The notes under the pieces are model-generated. The model was given only the letters and a program-made list of their open reading frames with translations, made no database searches and was not told the DNA's origin. The position numbers were made by a program, and so were the translations under genes. DNA of 47,185 nt from an uncultured Elusimicrobiales bacterium. Lineage in GTDB: Bacteria; Elusimicrobiota; Elusimicrobia; Elusimicrobiales; Elusimicrobiaceae. Below are positions 4,958 through 19,617 of this stretch, in pieces; positions within the stretch are counted from its first letter, which is position 1, and each line of letters begins with the position of its first letter. The DNA is taken from positions 1-47,185 of the forward strand of contig CALUZQ010000010.1 in assembly GCA_944325225.1 (NCBI GenBank). Direction: 5' to 3'.

Positions 4958-6142
4958 TTACAAATCGTAAGAAGAAACTTCCTTCGTTTTTAAATTAACC
5001 GTAATCATGCGTTTGGTCGGTTGTTGGGTAACCTCTATTTGGGCCGTTCCGTTTTTTCCCCGCCAACGCCGCGGATGTGGATATAAGGCCAAATCTTTAT
5101 CCGTACGAATGGTTCCGTTTTTAACCAACAGCAACTGCAGTTCGTCTGCCCAATGCAGTGGGGCTAAGGTTTCCAGGTGGTCGTAATCTACTTTATATTC
5201 TTCGTGCCAAAGCTGAAAGGCCAACAAGTTTTGACCGCGGCGGTTAATCATTACGGAGTAAATGTATTCGTTGATATCAATTTGCCCGATTATCTGTCCG
5301 TTTAGGACCAGATCGCGGGTTTTACTGCCGTTGTTATGGGCGGCTTCTATCAAATCCCGCAGAAACGAAACCGGTACGGCATAACTTTCCATTTTGGACT
5401 TGGAACTGCCGCAGTGTATGCCCACTAATTCGTTGTTTTCGTTTAAAAGGGGGCCACCGCAGGCGCCGGCCCGTTCATGATTGCCAAATTCAAAAGAAGT
5501 AATAATTCTCCCCGGCGAAGACAACAACACCCGGCGATTGGGAACAATGTGAAAATCTCCTTCAAAAAACCCATACGAACGGAGCATATCTCCGGATTTG
5601 GGGGCGTCTTCGGCCAGCGGTATGGGGTGAACAAAATCGGAAATATCTTCTTTGATGCGCAGCAGGGCAATATCGGCCATGCCGGCATTTCCTTTGGCGG
5701 CTACCTCAAACGGAAAATCCAACGGAATTCCCGTTTGGGTTGTTATATGGAGAGAGGTCCCCTCTCCCAATAAATCCAATACATGGGCAGCGGTTACCCC
5801 CCAAAGGTATTTTTCCCCTTCGCGCATTTCTTCTATAAAAAATACGGAAGGAGTAAAGGGAACAAATCCATACAGCTCCGGATTTTTTAAGGTGGCCATT
5901 CGCTCCAAAAACGAGGCGTCAAAAGCGGCTATTTGCTGTTGTTTGAGAGAGAGTTCCTTTGCTTTTGCCGCTTTTGCGGCGGCGCGTTGGATTTTGGCCG
6001 CCGCGGCGGCGGTACTTTTGCGTACTGTAGGTAAGGGTTTACCCATTTGTTTAAATTGTTTGAACAAGTTTTTCTGCCCGTAGGAATTTGAAAAACCAAA
6101 CAATATCAAAACAGCCAATAATGCAAAAGAATAATTTTTCAT
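4958..6142 (-). CDS. Secreted trypsin-fold protease, Cys nucleophile (array member 4)
   Basis: A 394-aa protein. I start it at the ATG at 6142 because a signal peptide follows directly (KNYSFALLAVLILFGFSNSYGQ split: KNYSFALLAVLI, then LFGFSNSYGQ); the open frame continues 15 codons upstream but lacks a signal there. After an Ala/Lys-rich stretch (about 44-62) comes a chymotrypsin-fold domain: His120 in WGVTAAHV, Asp157 in GMADIALLRI, and GACGGPLL with Cys228 where serine proteases have the Ser of GDSGGP. GxCGG is the nucleophile motif of viral 3C-type cysteine proteases. There is no PDZ domain. A C-terminal module of about 130 residues is shared with the three upstream paralogs. The start is 2 bases from the stop of the upstream gene, so translation is coupled. 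Export to periplasm or surface is inferred from the signal peptide; the substrate is unknown. Confidence 0.82.
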   Translation of the reverse strand: MKNYSFALLAVLILFGFSNSYGQKNLFKQFKQMGKPLPTVRKSTAAAAAKIQRAAAKAAKAKELSLKQQQIAAFDASFLERMATLKNPELYGFVPFTPSVFFIEEMREGEKYLWGVTAAHVLDLLGEGTSLHITTQTGIPLDFPFEVAAKGNAGMADIALLRIKEDISDFVHPIPLAEDAPKSGDMLRSYGFFEGDFHIVPNRRVLLSSPGRIITSFEFGNHERAGACGGPLLNENNELVGIHCGSSKSKMESYAVPVSFLRDLIEAAHNNGSKTRDLVLNGQIIGQIDINEYIYSVMINRRGQNLLAFQLWHEEYKVDYDHLETLAPLHWADELQLLLVKNGTIRTDKDLALYPHPRRWRGKNGTAQIEVTQQPTKRMITVNLKTKEVSSYDL

Positions 6143-6144
6143 TG

Positions 6145-7353
6145 TTATTTTTCTACCTTTTTTATTGTAGCTGAGGAAATATTCCATTCATACCATCGCA
6201 TACTTCGTTTAGCGGAGGAACGGTCCCCTTGCTGTACCACAATGCGAATCGTATCATCAGGGCCGACATTTAAAAATCGTTCTAAATGGGCGTAGTCCAA
6301 AAACGGATAACTGTAAATGGTTTTAATCAGCCGGCCGTTGCGCAGCTGCTGAATGGAGTGAATGTTCTCGTTGGCGTGTAAAATGCCCAGTGTTTTGCCT
6401 AGCAGCTTCAGCGGTACTCCGCCGGTTAAGGAAGGATCCTTCGCTTGGCTGGCCAGCAGCCGCACCCAAGCAATCGGTACGATGTGGTTAAAAGGATTAA
6501 TGATCACGCGTTTGTTTTCAGATAACCATTTTAACCAATCCGCCGCTTGGATTGTTTCCGGTAAAATCATACCGGCAAAAACACCCACCGCTTTGCCGTT
6601 TTTAAGCAAGGGGGAACCGCAATAACCGTTGCGGATTGGAAAGTCCTCATACCGCGCCAAAATACGGTGCTCGCTGGAAAATAATACGCCAATATGGGCA
6701 AACCAACCAAAATTGCCGTGGGAAAACCCGGCCGACTGTACTTGGGACTGGGCGGCGGGGAGGGCATAATCCGGTTCTAAGGGGACCAGCTGAGCGAGTG
6801 CGTCCGGCGGTATGCGGAAAATGGCAATATCAGCCCCGTGCACATTTCCTTCCCGCACCGAGAACACTTGAAAGAATTGCGGTGTACCGTCTTCGCCGGG
6901 GATTGACATAAAAGGAGAGCGGCCAATATCATCTAATACATGGCGTGCGGTAACCCCCCAGATTTCTCCGTCTATATTAACAGCAAAAGCGGACCCTTTG
7001 CCGTGGGACTGCGGACTGTGCTGTAAGGTAAAAACTGCTTTTTTGATGTTGGGTGGCGGCGGTAAAAGCGGGCGCGGGGCGATGCGGGGCACGCTGGGTG
7101 TCAGCAAAGGCGCAACGGAGACCCAGCCCCCGCGGGTTGCAATCCGAGATGCGATTATCGCTTCCATAGAATGGCGTGCCGTGGGGGTAAGCCCTTTGGA
7201 AACCGTCGGCCGCGGCGTATGCTTTTTCTTAATCCATAGTTTTTTGAGGATTCGTTGCAGCTGATTTGGTTGTGCAGCAACAGGAACGGAAATCCCGCTG
7301 CACAGGAAAAATAGGGCCGTACTTATAACGGCTAACCGGGTGATGGTGCGCAT
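6145..7353 (-). CDS. Secreted trypsin-fold protease, Cys nucleophile (array member 3)
   Basis: A 402-aa paralog of its neighbours. Signal peptide about residues 1-27 (ending PVAAQ), then a basic, Pro-rich linker up to about residue 102. Protease domain: His138 in IWGVTARHV, Asp175 in GADIAIFRI, Cys245 in NGYCGSPLL. The oxyanion Gly and the GSP after the nucleophile are kept, so only Ser-to-Cys has changed. The shared C-terminal module follows (GILHANENIHSIQQL, then DYAHLERFLNVG). ATG at 7353 has a good AAGGAG ribosome site; the gene sits 2 bases from both neighbours of the array. Active cysteine protease is an inference from the intact triad. Confidence 0.82.
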   Translation of the reverse strand: MRTITRLAVISTALFFLCSGISVPVAAQPNQLQRILKKLWIKKKHTPRPTVSKGLTPTARHSMEAIIASRIATRGGWVSVAPLLTPSVPRIAPRPLLPPPPNIKKAVFTLQHSPQSHGKGSAFAVNIDGEIWGVTARHVLDDIGRSPFMSIPGEDGTPQFFQVFSVREGNVHGADIAIFRIPPDALAQLVPLEPDYALPAAQSQVQSAGFSHGNFGWFAHIGVLFSSEHRILARYEDFPIRNGYCGSPLLKNGKAVGVFAGMILPETIQAADWLKWLSENKRVIINPFNHIVPIAWVRLLASQAKDPSLTGGVPLKLLGKTLGILHANENIHSIQQLRNGRLIKTIYSYPFLDYAHLERFLNVGPDDTIRIVVQQGDRSSAKRSMRWYEWNISSATIKKVEK

Positions 7354-7355
7354 AA

Positions 7356-8546
7356 CTATACTCCTTTTGGTGCCACTGTATGCTGTTTCAAGTCCACCAG
7401 GTAGCTGTATGTTTGTGTGTGTTTGTTGCGGATGATAATTTCTGCTTGTGTGGCATCGGTTAAATCAAACAAACTGTCTAAAAACAGTAAATCAAAGAAA
7501 GGGTTGCGCGTCAACTGTTTGGCAGTACCGTCCTGGTAATAAACCGTAATTGCGGCGACAAATTCATGAGGGGATAAGTAACCGATTCGTACGCCGTCAA
7601 ACAGCATGACCCGGCGTGCAGAACCGGGTTGGCGGTATTGACGGAGCAAATCATATGCCCGCGAGAAAGGCACCACTTCACTGATGTAAGATAAATCGGC
7701 TTGCGGCAAGGAAGGGAAGTTTTCTTTAGCTAAATACCACTGCAGCTGTTTATCGCGGGGCGAGTAGCCGCCGGTTTCAATCCCGATGGCCTGCCCGTGA
7801 TTGTTTAACACCAAGCTGCCGGCAAAACCGGGCTGCGTTTGGTTGGCGGGGGTCCAATCGGTTACGATGCGTTCTCCGTTTACTGCCAGAACTTTGCGTA
7901 ACATTTTGGTATAAGACCCGTTGTTAAATCCGTAAGCAAACACGGTGGCGCCGGTTTTGGTTTCTGTATCGGCCGGAAGGATGGGGCGGGCGACTTCCGC
8001 GGCTTGCGGCGGCAGCTGGATTAGGGCCGCATTTAACCCGTATTTGCGGCCGGATAAAACAATTTTCGCTGGGTAAGTATAAGTGTGGCCGTCCGCATAA
8101 AAAGTAACATTTACCTGGGGGCCCATATTTTGCACCACATGGGCGGCCGTTAATCCCCATAAAACGGTTTGCCCGTTGTACTCTTCGGCAAATACAAAAC
8201 CGCTGGCTTGAAACCCATTCTTAACTGTGGGGGAAGAAATAGTAAAAATGAAATGATTGGCATATTTTTCAAAAGGCATCAGCGCAAGAGGTTGCAGGAA
8301 CGGTTTTTTTACTTGCACCTGGGCGGTCATTCGGCGGGAAATCTGCAAAGCGGCTGATCCAGAGATTCCTGCTTGTACAAAAGGAGCCGGCTGTTTGGTA
8401 AACCGGGCAGACAGTTGTTTTTTAAGATGGGCCAACCAAAGAGCTTCCCCGGCTTTGGCCGCCACCGGCTGCGCTGCAGCTTGGGAACCAAGCACAGTTA
8501 AAAAAAGCGATAACAGCAGACCAGCCAGTAACAATTGTTTTTTCAT
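7356..8546 (-). CDS. Secreted trypsin-fold pseudoprotease (array member 2)
   Basis: A 396-aa paralog with a signal peptide (about 1-26, ending SQAAAQ). The fold is kept (WGLTAAHVVQNMG with His136; PGFAGSLVLNNHGQAIGIETGG) but two triad positions are lost: the Asp position is Asn172 (GLNAALIQL against G.ADIALLRI) and the nucleophile position is Ala242. It should have no peptidase activity. The open frame is intact and in step with its neighbours, so it is probably kept for binding or for regulating the active paralogs. The same C-terminal module is present (IGYLSPHEFVAAITVYY, then FFDLLFLDSLF). It starts 3 bases after the stop of the first array gene, with little of a ribosome site of its own. 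Confidence 0.82.
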   Translation of the reverse strand: MKKQLLLAGLLLSLFLTVLGSQAAAQPVAAKAGEALWLAHLKKQLSARFTKQPAPFVQAGISGSAALQISRRMTAQVQVKKPFLQPLALMPFEKYANHFIFTISSPTVKNGFQASGFVFAEEYNGQTVLWGLTAAHVVQNMGPQVNVTFYADGHTYTYPAKIVLSGRKYGLNAALIQLPPQAAEVARPILPADTETKTGATVFAYGFNNGSYTKMLRKVLAVNGERIVTDWTPANQTQPGFAGSLVLNNHGQAIGIETGGYSPRDKQLQWYLAKENFPSLPQADLSYISEVVPFSRAYDLLRQYRQPGSARRVMLFDGVRIGYLSPHEFVAAITVYYQDGTAKQLTRNPFFDLLFLDSLFDLTDATQAEIIIRNKHTQTYSYLVDLKQHTVAPKGV

Positions 8547-8549
8547 AAG

Positions 8550-9695
8550 TTACCAGTGAATGGGAGAATAGGAATAGATATTCGCTTTTTTATCGTAAAT
8601 TAAATACCGAAATTCATTATTCATATTAAATTCCATGGGCTTTTTCCCCCGGTTTTCCAACATCAGCCGCAAAAAGTGGGTTTCCGGCAGATTTAATAAA
8701 TTAACCATCGTGGACTGGGTCAGCCGGTTTTCCGTATCGTACCGGGCGATAGAACGGCCTTGAGCGTCCAGCGCTTCTACAGAATGGATATGCTCCCCGG
8801 GGAGAATGTTTCCCAATACATATTTCCCGGCTATCAGCGGGATATCGGTCGGTTCGCCGTGTTGGGCGCGCAGCAAATACGAAAGCAATTTGATATTGGA
8901 AGCGTAACCGATTTCATGCCCCCAGTTGCTGCCGCAGTGCACGCCTACAGTTTCCCCCTGTGCATTAATTAACGGGGCCCCGCACAGGCCGGCGCGTTTA
9001 TTTAACGGCACGGAATAATCCGTCCGCAAAAACCGTTGGTTGTCTTTTTGTAAAAATTGACGGGAGGTATAAACTAACTCCTGCCCGGAATAACCGGCTG
9101 AAATGAATGCTTCCCCCAGAGCAGACTCCGTTTGCGCCAGCGGGAGCGGGTTAATTTCCGGCGGCAGCGGGCCTTGCAGTTCCAGCAATGCAATGTCCGA
9201 CACCATATTCGGCCCATATTGTACTACTCGGGCCGGCAGTACGATTTTTCTATTGTTCTCGTAAAAAACTAATTTTAAATGTTCGCCCATGCCTTTGGCA
9301 ATATGCCCGGCGGTGGCGGCCCAGACTTCTTCTTTGCCGTTATAACGGGTTTTAAATACAAAAGCAGTGGCAGTGGGTTGATACTTTTCCGGCACGCCGT
9401 CCAACGCGGCAGACTGCAGTTTGGCAACGGAAAGACGAATATCTTTTACAACCGCTTGTTGGGCGGCTTTCGCTGCAGCTTTGATGAAGGGTTGGGCGGA
9501 GGCAGCTTGTTGGGCGGCTTTTTCTATGTTCGGAAGAGCCGCCGGCAAATTGCGCGCCGGGATAGGATGCTTGCCCAGCACTGCTTTTGCCGCTTGGCGA
9601 AAAGTTTTTGACTTTTGCGCAAAAAGGTTTGCCGGAGCCAGACAGACCGCGGTAAACACACTCAGTTGAATAGATAAGATAATAAACCGCTTCAT
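8550..9695 (-). CDS. Secreted trypsin-fold protease, Cys nucleophile (array member 1)
   Basis: First gene of the four-gene array, 381 aa. Signal peptide about residues 1-27 (ends NLFAQ), then an Ala/Gln/Lys-rich helical segment (about 33-95). Protease domain: His131 in WAATAGHI, Asp167 in SDIALLEL, Cys238 in AGLCGAPLI, then GVHCGSN. A second Cys (in VHCGS) is shared with the last gene of the array. The C-terminal module starts at about residue 285 (LGNILPGEHIHSVEAL). A TTGACA box lies upstream, but no good ribosome site is visible. Closest in layout to the last array member; the array looks like repeated tandem duplication. Confidence 0.82.
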   Translation of the reverse strand: MKRFIILSIQLSVFTAVCLAPANLFAQKSKTFRQAAKAVLGKHPIPARNLPAALPNIEKAAQQAASAQPFIKAAAKAAQQAVVKDIRLSVAKLQSAALDGVPEKYQPTATAFVFKTRYNGKEEVWAATAGHIAKGMGEHLKLVFYENNRKIVLPARVVQYGPNMVSDIALLELQGPLPPEINPLPLAQTESALGEAFISAGYSGQELVYTSRQFLQKDNQRFLRTDYSVPLNKRAGLCGAPLINAQGETVGVHCGSNWGHEIGYASNIKLLSYLLRAQHGEPTDIPLIAGKYVLGNILPGEHIHSVEALDAQGRSIARYDTENRLTQSTMVNLLNLPETHFLRLMLENRGKKPMEFNMNNEFRYLIYDKKANIYSYSPIHW

Positions 9696-9697
9696 AA

Positions 9698-9726
9698 TAA
9701 ATACTCTATTGATTTTTAGTTGTCAA
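9698..9726 (-). promoter_or_regulatory. Candidate promoter of the protease array
   Basis: On the minus strand a perfect TTGACA (9726-9721) is followed after 17 bases by TATTTA (9703-9698). Spacing is ideal, but the -10 ends only 2 bases before the ATG at 9695, so the transcript would start at or inside the start codon. Either the mRNA is leaderless or another -10 such as TAGAGT is used. Confidence 0.5.
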
Positions 9727-9792
9727 AACCAGGGCCTTTAGTCCTAGGAAGAGGGGCCGCTAAGGCCCACTAGCTCTTAGGCCCGCGGTAAG
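9727..9792. other. Intergenic stretch with GGGCC-rich hairpins
   Basis: Between the array promoter and the glyA terminator lies a stretch with overlapping inverted repeats (CCAGGGCCTTTAGTCCTAGG, and CTAAG with CTTAG around 11 bases). The motif CCAGGGCCTTT plus CCTA recurs inverted near 18530-18560. No gene is seen. Confidence 0.4.
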
Positions 9793-9828
9793 AAAAATCC
9801 CCGGGAATTTTGCTGGTTCCCGGGGATT
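9793..9828 (-). terminator. Terminator of glyA
   Basis: On the minus strand AATCCCCGGGAA pairs with TTCCCGGGGATT around 9 bases and is followed by TTTTTC. It lies 11 bases after the glyA stop. Confidence 0.9.
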
Positions 9829-9838
9829 ACCGAACGGA

Positions 9839-12313: not shown

Positions 12314-13174
12314 ATGGTGATGCGACTGAAAACCGCGTTTATCAGTTTGATCCTGCTGATCTGCCCGTGTGCGTTATGCTACGGGCAGCTCAGTTTTTCG
12401 GGGGTCAACGGCGAACGCGGCTATGCCGCCCTGCGCGCGTATTACCGGCTGGATTTGGATAACGGGTTTGTGATTACCCCCATGTATGGGTATTACCGTA
12501 TGTCGGATAAAGAAATTGACGAAGCCGGTTCCACCTCCCGTTACGGGGTGGAAGTGTCCTATGAACTAAACGATTCCTGGCGGGTGCTGGCCGAAGGCAT
12601 GTGGCAGCCGCAGGCGGTGGGGTATCAGGCCGTGGGATATGCCGCCGGCGTAAGCTGGGTGCCCTTTTATCGGTGGGGCATTTTAAAAAATCCGTTGTTG
12701 ACGGGATACGCCGAACAAACCCGGTACTGCACTTATGTAGATAAACAAGGCAACGAACTGCCCGGCGGTTCTTTTAGAGAGGTGGAAACCGGGGCCCATG
12801 TGGAAGCTTCGGCCGACGCGGGAAACTGGAATTTGAAAGCCGCTTGGCATAAAGTGATAGAATATAGTAGCAAGCCGCCCCATGACCTTACTTTCAGCTG
12901 GGCCAATATTCCCTTTATGACGGCGGTGGTACAAGGTTTTGTGAAAGAAGCGGCAGCTGTGCGGGTTAGCTACCGAACCGAATTTTTTACGCCGTATGCT
13001 TCTTTGGCAAGATATCGTTACAACGAGTTAAGCGATACGGCGGCGGCGGTAAGTGCGGGGATACATCTGCATTTGGGGGAATTATCCCTGGCCGGCGGGG
13101 TGGAAGTATTTGAACCGCGGCGGGAAGATAACCGAAAAACTTATTTTTCTATGTCTGCCGAAGTAGCATTTTAA
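12314..13174 (+). CDS. Secreted, probably outer-membrane beta-barrel protein
   Basis: A 286-aa protein with a signal peptide (about 1-25, ends CALCYGQ). The rest alternates aromatic and polar residues in short strands (GFVITPMYGYYRM, WRVLAEGMWQPQAVGY, YRTEFFTPYASLARYRY) and ends in FSMSAEVAF, an aromatic C-terminus as in BamA-folded barrels. I do not recognise the family. Its start abuts the stop of the upstream gene (TAAATG), with further in-frame starts at 12317 and 12320, so translation is coupled. No functional link to its neighbours is evident. Confidence 0.62.
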   Translation: MVMRLKTAFISLILLICPCALCYGQLSFSGVNGERGYAALRAYYRLDLDNGFVITPMYGYYRMSDKEIDEAGSTSRYGVEVSYELNDSWRVLAEGMWQPQAVGYQAVGYAAGVSWVPFYRWGILKNPLLTGYAEQTRYCTYVDKQGNELPGGSFREVETGAHVEASADAGNWNLKAAWHKVIEYSSKPPHDLTFSWANIPFMTAVVQGFVKEAAAVRVSYRTEFFTPYASLARYRYNELSDTAAAVSAGIHLHLGELSLAGGVEVFEPRREDNRKTYFSMSAEVAF

Positions 13175-18526: not shown

Positions 18527-18579
18527 AGTCCCAGGGGGAATTAGGTCCAAAGGCCCTGGCAGCCGTGCGGACAATCTTT

Positions 18580-18585
18580 TACAAT
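18580..18585 (+). promoter_or_regulatory. -10 box of the secreted protein gene
   Basis: TACAAT 18 bases before the ATG at 18604, after a GC-rich stretch that carries an inverted copy of the CCAGGGCCTTT motif seen near 9730. An AAGGA ribosome site follows. Confidence 0.5.
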
Positions 18586-18603
18586 AAAAAAAAGGATCTG
18601 AAA

Positions 18604-19617
18604 ATGAAAAAATACCTATTTCTCCTCTTTTTGCTTCCCGCGTTCGCCCAGGGACAGACCTGGCAAAAAGCGTGGGACGGAGCCCAAAAAGCGTTGCTTA
18701 AACCCGGCAGTTCTTCGTTGGAACGAAGCCGTCAGGCCCTGCAAAAAGCACGCCAGCAGCTGCAAGTGTCCGACGATGGAATCCGCCTGTGGTTGGATCG
18801 GCGCCATTCCCCGGTAGTGCCGGCGCATGCTTCGCAGTTGGAGGCCTGGGCGTGGCTGAGCAACCGGTTAATGCTCAAAGAACACGACTTGCGGAAACAG
18901 CAAATCCAATTTTTTCAGCAGCACTCCCACGGGATTGAACCGGGAGCACTGGCGTATTTTGCCGGGCGCCCGGCGGATTTGCCGGCCCGGATGGGGGAAA
19001 ATGTCCGGTTTGTGGTGGTGGGCGCTAAGAAAGGGGAAGGGCAGGCCCTGGTGGCTTTTAAAAAAATGGCGGCCCAGTACCGGGCGGCATTTCCCGGGCG
19101 GAAAGTAATTATTCTGGCGCAATCACTGCCGGACCGGGGGGTGCGTTTTATGTCGGAAACCGCCGCACCCGAAGAACAGAAAGGATTGGTGCGTTCGTTG
19201 ATACAGGACCGGTTTGCAGTGGGCGGATTGGGGGATCCTTCGGCCAAACCCGAGGGATATGTAACGCAGGATAATTCCAATTTATTAATTTCTTCGGCGG
19301 AAGTGCCGGCGTCCGAAGCGGCGCGCAGTTTTCATATGCGCCGCCGGCTAGCCGAGTGGAAGAAGGCCTATCCGCAGGCCGTTTTCTTTGTTTATGTATC
19401 TCCGCTGGCCGCCGCGTATGACTGGAAGTTTTCATTGGTAAACGGATTGGCGGAACAAGAAGTTTTTGCCGTGAGCATTACTTCGGTGCGAAATACCCGG
19501 GATTTTCTGTTCCACCGCTGGCGCGCGTTTCAAGAAGCGCGCCCCGGTATGTTGCTGTGGCAGAAAGCCCCCTGGGCCCGCATGAGCGGGTTTGACGCCC
19601 AGCTGATTCTGCCTTGA
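18604..19617 (+). CDS. Secreted protein of unknown function
   Basis: A 337-aa protein. I start it at ATG 18604, directly before a signal peptide (MKKYLFLLFLLPAFAQGQ); the frame is open for 13 more codons upstream without a signal. The mature part has two alpha/beta-looking blocks, each a hydrophobic strand after a predicted helix: NVRFVVVGAKKGEG ... GRKVIILAQSLPDRG, and AYPQAVFFVYVSPLAAAYD. An Arg/Gln-rich helical region lies at about 35-65 and an aromatic-rich stretch is found near the end (RWRAFQEARPGMLLW). I do not recognise the family and see no catalytic motif I trust. It converges on nagZ, whose stop abuts its own. Confidence 0.7.
   Translation: MKKYLFLLFLLPAFAQGQTWQKAWDGAQKALLKPGSSSLERSRQALQKARQQLQVSDDGIRLWLDRRHSPVVPAHASQLEAWAWLSNRLMLKEHDLRKQQIQFFQQHSHGIEPGALAYFAGRPADLPARMGENVRFVVVGAKKGEGQALVAFKKMAAQYRAAFPGRKVIILAQSLPDRGVRFMSETAAPEEQKGLVRSLIQDRFAVGGLGDPSAKPEGYVTQDNSNLLISSAEVPASEAARSFHMRRRLAEWKKAYPQAVFFVYVSPLAAAYDWKFSLVNGLAEQEVFAVSITSVRNTRDFLFHRWRAFQEARPGMLLWQKAPWARMSGFDAQLILP

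What the first reader, a model, noticed from the sequence alone, without database searches (positions are those of the whole stretch)
4958..9695. Tandem array of secreted trypsin-fold proteases with Cys in place of the catalytic Ser
Three of four tandem genes keep His and Asp of a chymotrypsin-type triad but have Cys at the Ser195 position: GACGGP (Cys228), GYCGSP (Cys245), GLCGAP (Cys238). The His is in TAAHV, TARHV or TAGHI, the Asp in .ADIA or SDIA. GxCGG is the nucleophile motif of viral 3C-like cysteine proteases; to my knowledge cellular members of this clan are nearly always serine proteases. All have signal peptides and lie 2-3 bases apart, so they form one operon. This could be an uncharacterised bacterial family of secreted 3C-like cysteine proteases, perhaps for host or food proteins in a gut. 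Seen: residues and operon. Known: triad layout. Inferred: activity.
Basis: partly seen in the sequence, partly recalled or inferred. Interest (0 to 1): 0.88.

Follow-up and report, generated by a model that had tools for sequence, protein, structure and literature searches.

The report
Bacterial trypsin-fold cysteine protease family
Gut bacteria of the phylum Elusimicrobiota carry rows of exported trypsin-shaped proteases whose catalytic serine is replaced, as a fixed family trait, by cysteine, a chemistry that the reviews I could read give only to RNA viruses within this protein fold.

Summary
Four tandem minus-strand genes (4958-9695) encode signal-peptide proteins with a chymotrypsin-type domain. 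P1, P2 and P4 have His-Asp-Cys; P3 has His-Asn-Ala. AlphaFold (pLDDT 90.6) plus Foldseek give an HtrA-like chymotrypsin fold, and a profile alignment to plant Deg2 puts the Cys on the catalytic Ser. The family runs through one Elusimicrobiaceae genus (up to 16 copies per genome). Of 177 distinct domains carrying the family's own C-terminal domain, found by a separate profile, 172 have Cys, 0 Ser, 5 neither; four of those five also lack His or Asp. The four-gene operon keeps its order between glyA and a Sel1-repeat gene in six other genomes; the proteases diverge to 41-66% identity while most neighbours keep over 90%, yet slot-specific active sites persist. Most members have GIHxGS at the S1 pocket, as in V8 and 3C proteases, suggesting Glu/Gln specificity (inferred). 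Nearest folds are HtrA proteases and sister lineages keep Ser, so I favour a Ser-to-Cys switch inside bacteria over capture from a virus. Published surveys call cellular PA-clan proteases serine enzymes. No activity has been measured; occurrence beyond the phylum was only partly searched.

The parts
8550..9695 (-). P4, slot 1 of the operon, 381 aa: signal peptide, helical N-terminal segment, chymotrypsin-fold domain (His131, Asp167, Cys238), C-terminal beta domain from about residue 280
8982..8984 (-). TGC codon of P4 Cys238, proposed nucleophile (GLCGAP)
7356..8546 (-). P3, slot 2, 396 aa: His kept, Asp replaced by Asn, nucleophile replaced by Ala; predicted dead here. Relatives in the same slot are His-Asn-Cys
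7821..7823 (-). GCC (Ala242) in P3 where slot-2 relatives carry Cys
6145..7353 (-). P2, slot 3, 402 aa: His-Asp-Cys245, Phe at the S1 position (GVFAG)
6619..6621 (-). TGC codon of P2 Cys245 (GYCGSP)
4958..6142 (-). P1, slot 4, 394 aa from the internal Met (ORF opens at 6187): His120, Asp157, Cys228, S1 His (GIHCGS)
5459..5461 (-). TGC codon of P1 Cys228 (GACGGP)
9696..9838 (-). Intergenic stretch between glyA and P4: G+C-rich inverted repeat with T-run close to the glyA end, TTGACA hexamer shortly before the P4 start (read by eye)
   Evidence: sequence printed; the promoter scan found no excess over shuffles

Best explanation
The locus is an operon of exported peptidases with the chymotrypsin double beta-barrel and a His-Asp-Cys triad. 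Most likely His activates the Cys thiol, which attacks the peptide bond next to an oxyanion hole formed by GxCG, and the thioacyl-enzyme is then hydrolysed. The signal peptide carries the protein across the inner membrane. Shown: residues, fixation of the Cys, fold, signal-peptide sequences, conserved operon. Inferred: catalysis, and cleavage after Glu or Gln for members with His at position 213 (P1, P4). The slots differ at the S1 position (His, Glu, Phe, His), so the four enzymes probably cut different bonds of shared protein substrates in the gut. P3 has lost activity in this species. The family most likely arose by a Ser-to-Cys switch from an HtrA/V8-type serine protease within Elusimicrobiota.
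For: Fold: AlphaFold pLDDT 90.6, pTM 0.80; Foldseek best hits are HtrA/DegP/DegS, probability 1.00, E to 1.4e-11, TM-score 0.73 on the DegS protease domain. Profile alignment to plant Deg2 (4fln) pairs His with His, Asp with Asp, Cys with Ser. Fixation, tested without circularity: among 177 domains with the family's C-terminal domain (separate HMM) 172 Cys, 0 Ser, 5 other. Columns 57, 195 and 102 rank 2nd, 5th and 7th in conservation of 170, although the median column has only 39% identity. Co-loss: four of the five members without Cys also lack His or Asp. Four-gene order with slot-specific active sites in six other genomes, between neighbours that diverge far less. S1 His in 136 of 193 Cys members. 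Solved relatives by profile include V8, SplB, arterivirus nsp4 and picornavirus 3C. Ser versions of the domain occur only without this C-terminal domain, some in giant proteins of sister genus g3.
Against: No activity data. S1 specificity from one residue is weak, and position -5 (Thr in V8 and 3C, from memory) is variable here. The tree does not settle one origin of Cys: fewest changes 3 for the Ser/Cys label, with long branches and one mislabelled Ser row. All genomes seen are assemblies, mostly from metagenomes.
Confidence: 0.8

Rival explanations
1. Pseudoproteases: secreted binding proteins that kept the fold, with the Cys serving a structural or metal-binding role.
For: Some members are clearly dead: P3 of the window, the Gln-Asp-Trp pair L041/L046, L066, L116. 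Slot 2 has Asn in place of Asp throughout.
Against: His, Asp, Cys and the oxyanion glycines are among the best conserved columns of a family with 39% median column identity, and Cys is usually lost together with His or Asp. Half of 184 members have no other mature Cys apart from an optional one at position 214, which argues against a disulfide.
Confidence: 0.1
2. The enzymes use the same thiol chemistry for a reaction other than proteolysis, such as transpeptidation, acyl transfer or deamidation of Gln.
For: A thioacyl intermediate can be passed to acceptors other than water (general knowledge; no tool result supports it here).
Against: No accessory sequence or neighbour points to an acceptor substrate; known members of the clan with this motif are endopeptidases (PMC6524800).
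Confidence: 0.07
3. The genes derive from a picornavirus-like 3C protease acquired from an RNA virus.
For: GxCGG...GIHxG motif; weak Pfam Peptidase_C3 matches below cut-off; 3C structures in the profile search.
Against: Best sequence and fold matches are HtrA enzymes; in the viral library the top hits are large DNA virus peptidases and astrovirus/barnavirus serine proteases; Ser versions occur in sister lineages; nothing in IMG/VR, phage or plasmid collections.
Confidence: 0.03

Closest known systems
HtrA/Deg serine proteases (MEROPS S1C)
   Same: Fold (Foldseek best hits), His-Asp placement, exported
   Different: Cys in place of Ser; no PDZ domain found; own C-terminal beta domain; tandem paralogues
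V8 / Spl glutamyl endopeptidases (MEROPS S1B)
   Same: Secreted bacterial enzymes of the fold; GIHxG S1 motif as in V8; profile matches to V8 and SplB
   Different: Cys nucleophile; extra C-terminal domain; only weak pairwise similarity (P1 to plasmid splB 31% over 24% of the query)
Picornavirus 3C proteases (MEROPS C3)
   Same: Cys nucleophile, GxCGG motif, His in the S1 pocket, chymotrypsin fold
   Different: Bacterial chromosome genes with signal peptides, not part of a viral polyprotein; below the Pfam C3 cut-off; fold closer to HtrA
MarP family serine protease (NCBIfam NF033740)
   Same: Sequence match of P4, E 1.4e-7
   Different: 30.9 bits against a cut-off of 250; Ser enzyme
RT-Protease_XI (PADLOC)
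   Same: Weak match over its trypsin-like part (P1, E 4.5e-8)
   Different: No reverse transcriptase part matched here; exported proteins

Membership tests
PA clan (chymotrypsin fold) | Double beta-barrel fold | tested here: met
   AlphaFold pLDDT 90.6; Foldseek probability 1.00 to DegP/DegS
PA clan (chymotrypsin fold) | His, Asp, nucleophile in that order at the canonical positions | tested here: met
   Profile alignment to 4fln; column tally
S1 serine peptidases (trypsin, V8, HtrA) | Ser nucleophile | tested here: not met
   0 Ser among 177 members defined by the C-terminal domain
S1C HtrA | PDZ domain after the protease domain | tested here: not met
   No PDZ in Pfam scans of 47 members; the C-terminal domain has no significant PDB fold match
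C3 picornain and other viral PA cysteine peptidases | Cys nucleophile | tested here: met
C3 picornain and other viral PA cysteine peptidases | Sequence membership (Pfam PF00548 above cut-off) | tested here: not met
   12.5 and 14.6 bits against 22 for P1 and P4; 1 of 47 members with E 0.0032
C3 picornain and other viral PA cysteine peptidases | Encoded in a positive-strand RNA virus polyprotein | tested here: not met
   Separate genes with signal peptides on bacterial chromosomes
Active cysteine endopeptidase | Thiol-dependent peptide hydrolysis | not testable with these tools
   No biochemistry available
Glu/Gln-specific endopeptidase | His at position 213 in the S1 pocket | tested here: inconclusive
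   Present in 136 of 193 Cys members, P1 and P4 included; Phe, Tyr or Glu in others

The most novel reading that the evidence does not exclude
Elusimicrobiota hold a cellular family of PA-clan cysteine peptidases that arose from bacterial serine proteases independently of the viral ones, then expanded to as many as 16 genes per genome, settled into a fixed four-enzyme operon with slot-specific active sites, and in Elusimicrobium-like relatives was built into giant proteins with several such domains.
Probability: 0.6. Interest if true: 0.85.

Novelty: new variant of a known kind. Interest (0 to 1): 0.76.

Why it matters
Reviews state that cellular chymotrypsin-fold proteases use Ser and that the cysteine families of this clan come from positive-strand RNA viruses (PMC4576821, PMC6524800). 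A bacterial clade with the switch fixed across at least two genera, beside Ser relatives, gives a natural system for asking how a nucleophile exchange happens, so far modelled by directed evolution of TEV protease. It also suggests a new set of gut proteases that inhibitors of serine proteases should miss, and possible new sequence-specific cutting tools.

Tried and rejected
The eight-member alignment was too divergent for the degenerate-pattern scan, so a P4-orthologue alignment was used. PHROGs and PADLOC gave only weak protease-domain hits. Phage, plasmid and IMG/VR searches gave no relative of P4; P1 found only distant staphylococcal Spl-type proteases on plasmids. Foldseek with the C-terminal domain gave no significant match (best E 0.36). 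I considered the LQ|SA sequence near the start of the P4 protease domain as a self-cleavage site like that of 3CL and dropped it: it lies at the end of the predicted first strand and is not conserved outside the P4 group. One row (L148) was counted as Cys through a misaligned column; its motif is GFSGGP, so it is Ser, and one search leaves it out. Paper searches for bacterial PA-clan cysteine proteases found none, in an open-access library only.

Full report
Observation. The window is contig C10 of a 1.6 Mb genome. Four minus-strand ORFs lie 2, 2 and 3 bases apart once P1 starts at its internal Met just before the signal peptide. Pfam assigns Trypsin_2 to all four, P2 just under the cut-off.

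Fold. An alignment of 47 proteins from the window and the named loci gave an AlphaFold model of mature P4 with pLDDT 90.6 and pTM 0.80. Foldseek against the PDB returned HtrA/DegP/DegS enzymes at probability 1.00, with target TM-score 0.73 on the isolated DegS protease domain. A profile search of PDB sequences aligned the family to plant Deg2 with His on His, Asp on Asp and the Cys on the catalytic Ser, and also found V8, Spl, arterivirus nsp4 and picornavirus 3C. The C-terminal domain of about 100 residues is a confident beta fold (pLDDT 92.2) without a significant PDB match. Three helices precede the protease domain; whether they are a propeptide is unknown.

Is the Cys fixed? With P4 as query 38 of 61 genomes of the genus have copies; with a profile up to 16 per genome. 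To avoid defining the family by its Cys, I took every protease domain followed by the family's C-terminal domain, recognised by a separate HMM: 177 distinct domains, of which 172 have Cys, none Ser and 5 something else. Domains without it are 35 Ser and 22 Cys. Four of the five members that lost Cys also lack His or Asp, as expected if the Cys is part of the same active site. In the protease domain, His57, Cys195 and Asp102 rank 2nd, 5th and 7th in conservation of 170 columns while the median column reaches 39% identity. Other mature residues are Cys at 0.30%.

Operon. In six gut MAGs (L174-L179, four labelled Elusimicrobiales and two unnamed bins) the same four genes occur in the same order between glyA and a Sel1-repeat gene. 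The proteases share 41-66% identity with the window's, whereas glyA has 93-94%, the gene at window 11237 97-99%, the SPFH gene 91-94%, atpD 97% and Sel1 73-79%. So these proteins change quickly but keep slot-specific sites: slot 1 (P4) His-Asp-Cys mostly with S1 His; slot 2 (P3) His-Asn-Cys with Glu; slot 3 (P2) His-Asp-Cys with Phe; slot 4 (P1) His-Asp-Cys with His. Among slot-2 proteins seen, the window's copy and the slot-2-like L066 protein have lost the Cys. The own genome has a second array of three and a single further member, all with Cys.

Distribution and origin. All 17 named loci are Elusimicrobiota or unnamed gut bins holding the same operon or array. In genus g2 the domain occurs with Cys inside giant proteins: G061, a single contig of 1,643,562 bases, has an ORF of 3968 aa with GFCGSP, GYCGSA and GFCGAP domains, and G068 an ORF of 5734 aa. 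That contig length is the one I recall for the cultured Elusimicrobium minutum Pei191; this was not verified. A distant family of the phylum (G226) has a GTCGAA domain in another giant. In genus g3 giant proteins carry Ser versions. HtrA-type proteins of the phylum have Ser. A FastTree analysis with the nucleophile column removed clusters the labels but does not resolve a single origin. I read this as a Ser-to-Cys switch within the phylum, probable rather than shown.

Mechanism. Established knowledge of the clan: His-Asp activates the nucleophile, and the backbone around GxSG/GxCG forms the oxyanion hole. With GxCG nearly invariant and His and Asp kept, thiol proteolysis is the best inference. 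In 136 of 193 Cys members the S1 position is His in GIHxGS, the pattern of V8 and 3C (from memory), which cut after Glu and Gln; the prediction for P1 and P4 is Glu or Gln, at about even odds. The export signal is read from sequence; the final location (periplasm, surface, medium) and the substrates are unknown. Food or host protein in an anoxic gut, where thiols stay reduced, is a plausible setting, not a result.

Known or new. PMC6524800 lists the cysteine families of this clan as representing positive-strand RNA viruses. PMC4576821 says that cellular proteases use Ser and both types are found in viruses. I found no report of a bacterial cysteine family in this clan, within an open-access library. 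The family fails the defining feature of S1 (Ser) and the sequence and viral features of C3, so I file it as a cellular cysteine variant of the PA clan.

Noticed in passing
window 4958-9695, 12314-13174, 18529-19614; all 47 rows of alignment A3: After the predicted signal-peptide cleavage the first residue is Gln in all 47 aligned family members and in some other exported proteins of the window (YG-QLSF at 12314). This resembles the 'Q-rule' described as specific to Bacteroidetes (PMC5837995). No Glu_cyclase_2 in the genome; three Peptidase_M28 matches, the family that I recall includes type II glutaminyl cyclases.
   Followed up: partly
L221 1-10660, L222, L223, L224, L225, L233: Giant ORFs (up to 5734 aa) in genus g2 and in a distant family of the phylum hold one to five chymotrypsin-fold domains, mostly with Cys; one domain of the L225 protein (L166) has Ser with GVHW. 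Little else in the scanned ones matched Pfam.
   Followed up: partly
L226-L229: Genus g3 has giant proteins with Ser versions of the domain, one next to a weak Peptidase_C13 match; possible intermediates for the Ser-to-Cys question.
   Followed up: partly
L041 and L046, second gene: Gln-Asp-Trp pseudoprotease next to a His-Asp-Cys paralogue in two genomes: a repeated pairing of a dead and a presumably active copy.
   Followed up: no
window 8550-8858 and matching parts of relatives: C-terminal beta domain of about 100 residues with a confident model and no significant PDB match (best E 0.36).
   Followed up: partly
C8:17696-21483 of the own genome (L009): Second tandem array of three Cys proteases with IATH in place of TAxH, beside a glyceraldehyde-3-phosphate-dehydrogenase-like gene and a small lipoprotein-like ORF.
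   Followed up: no
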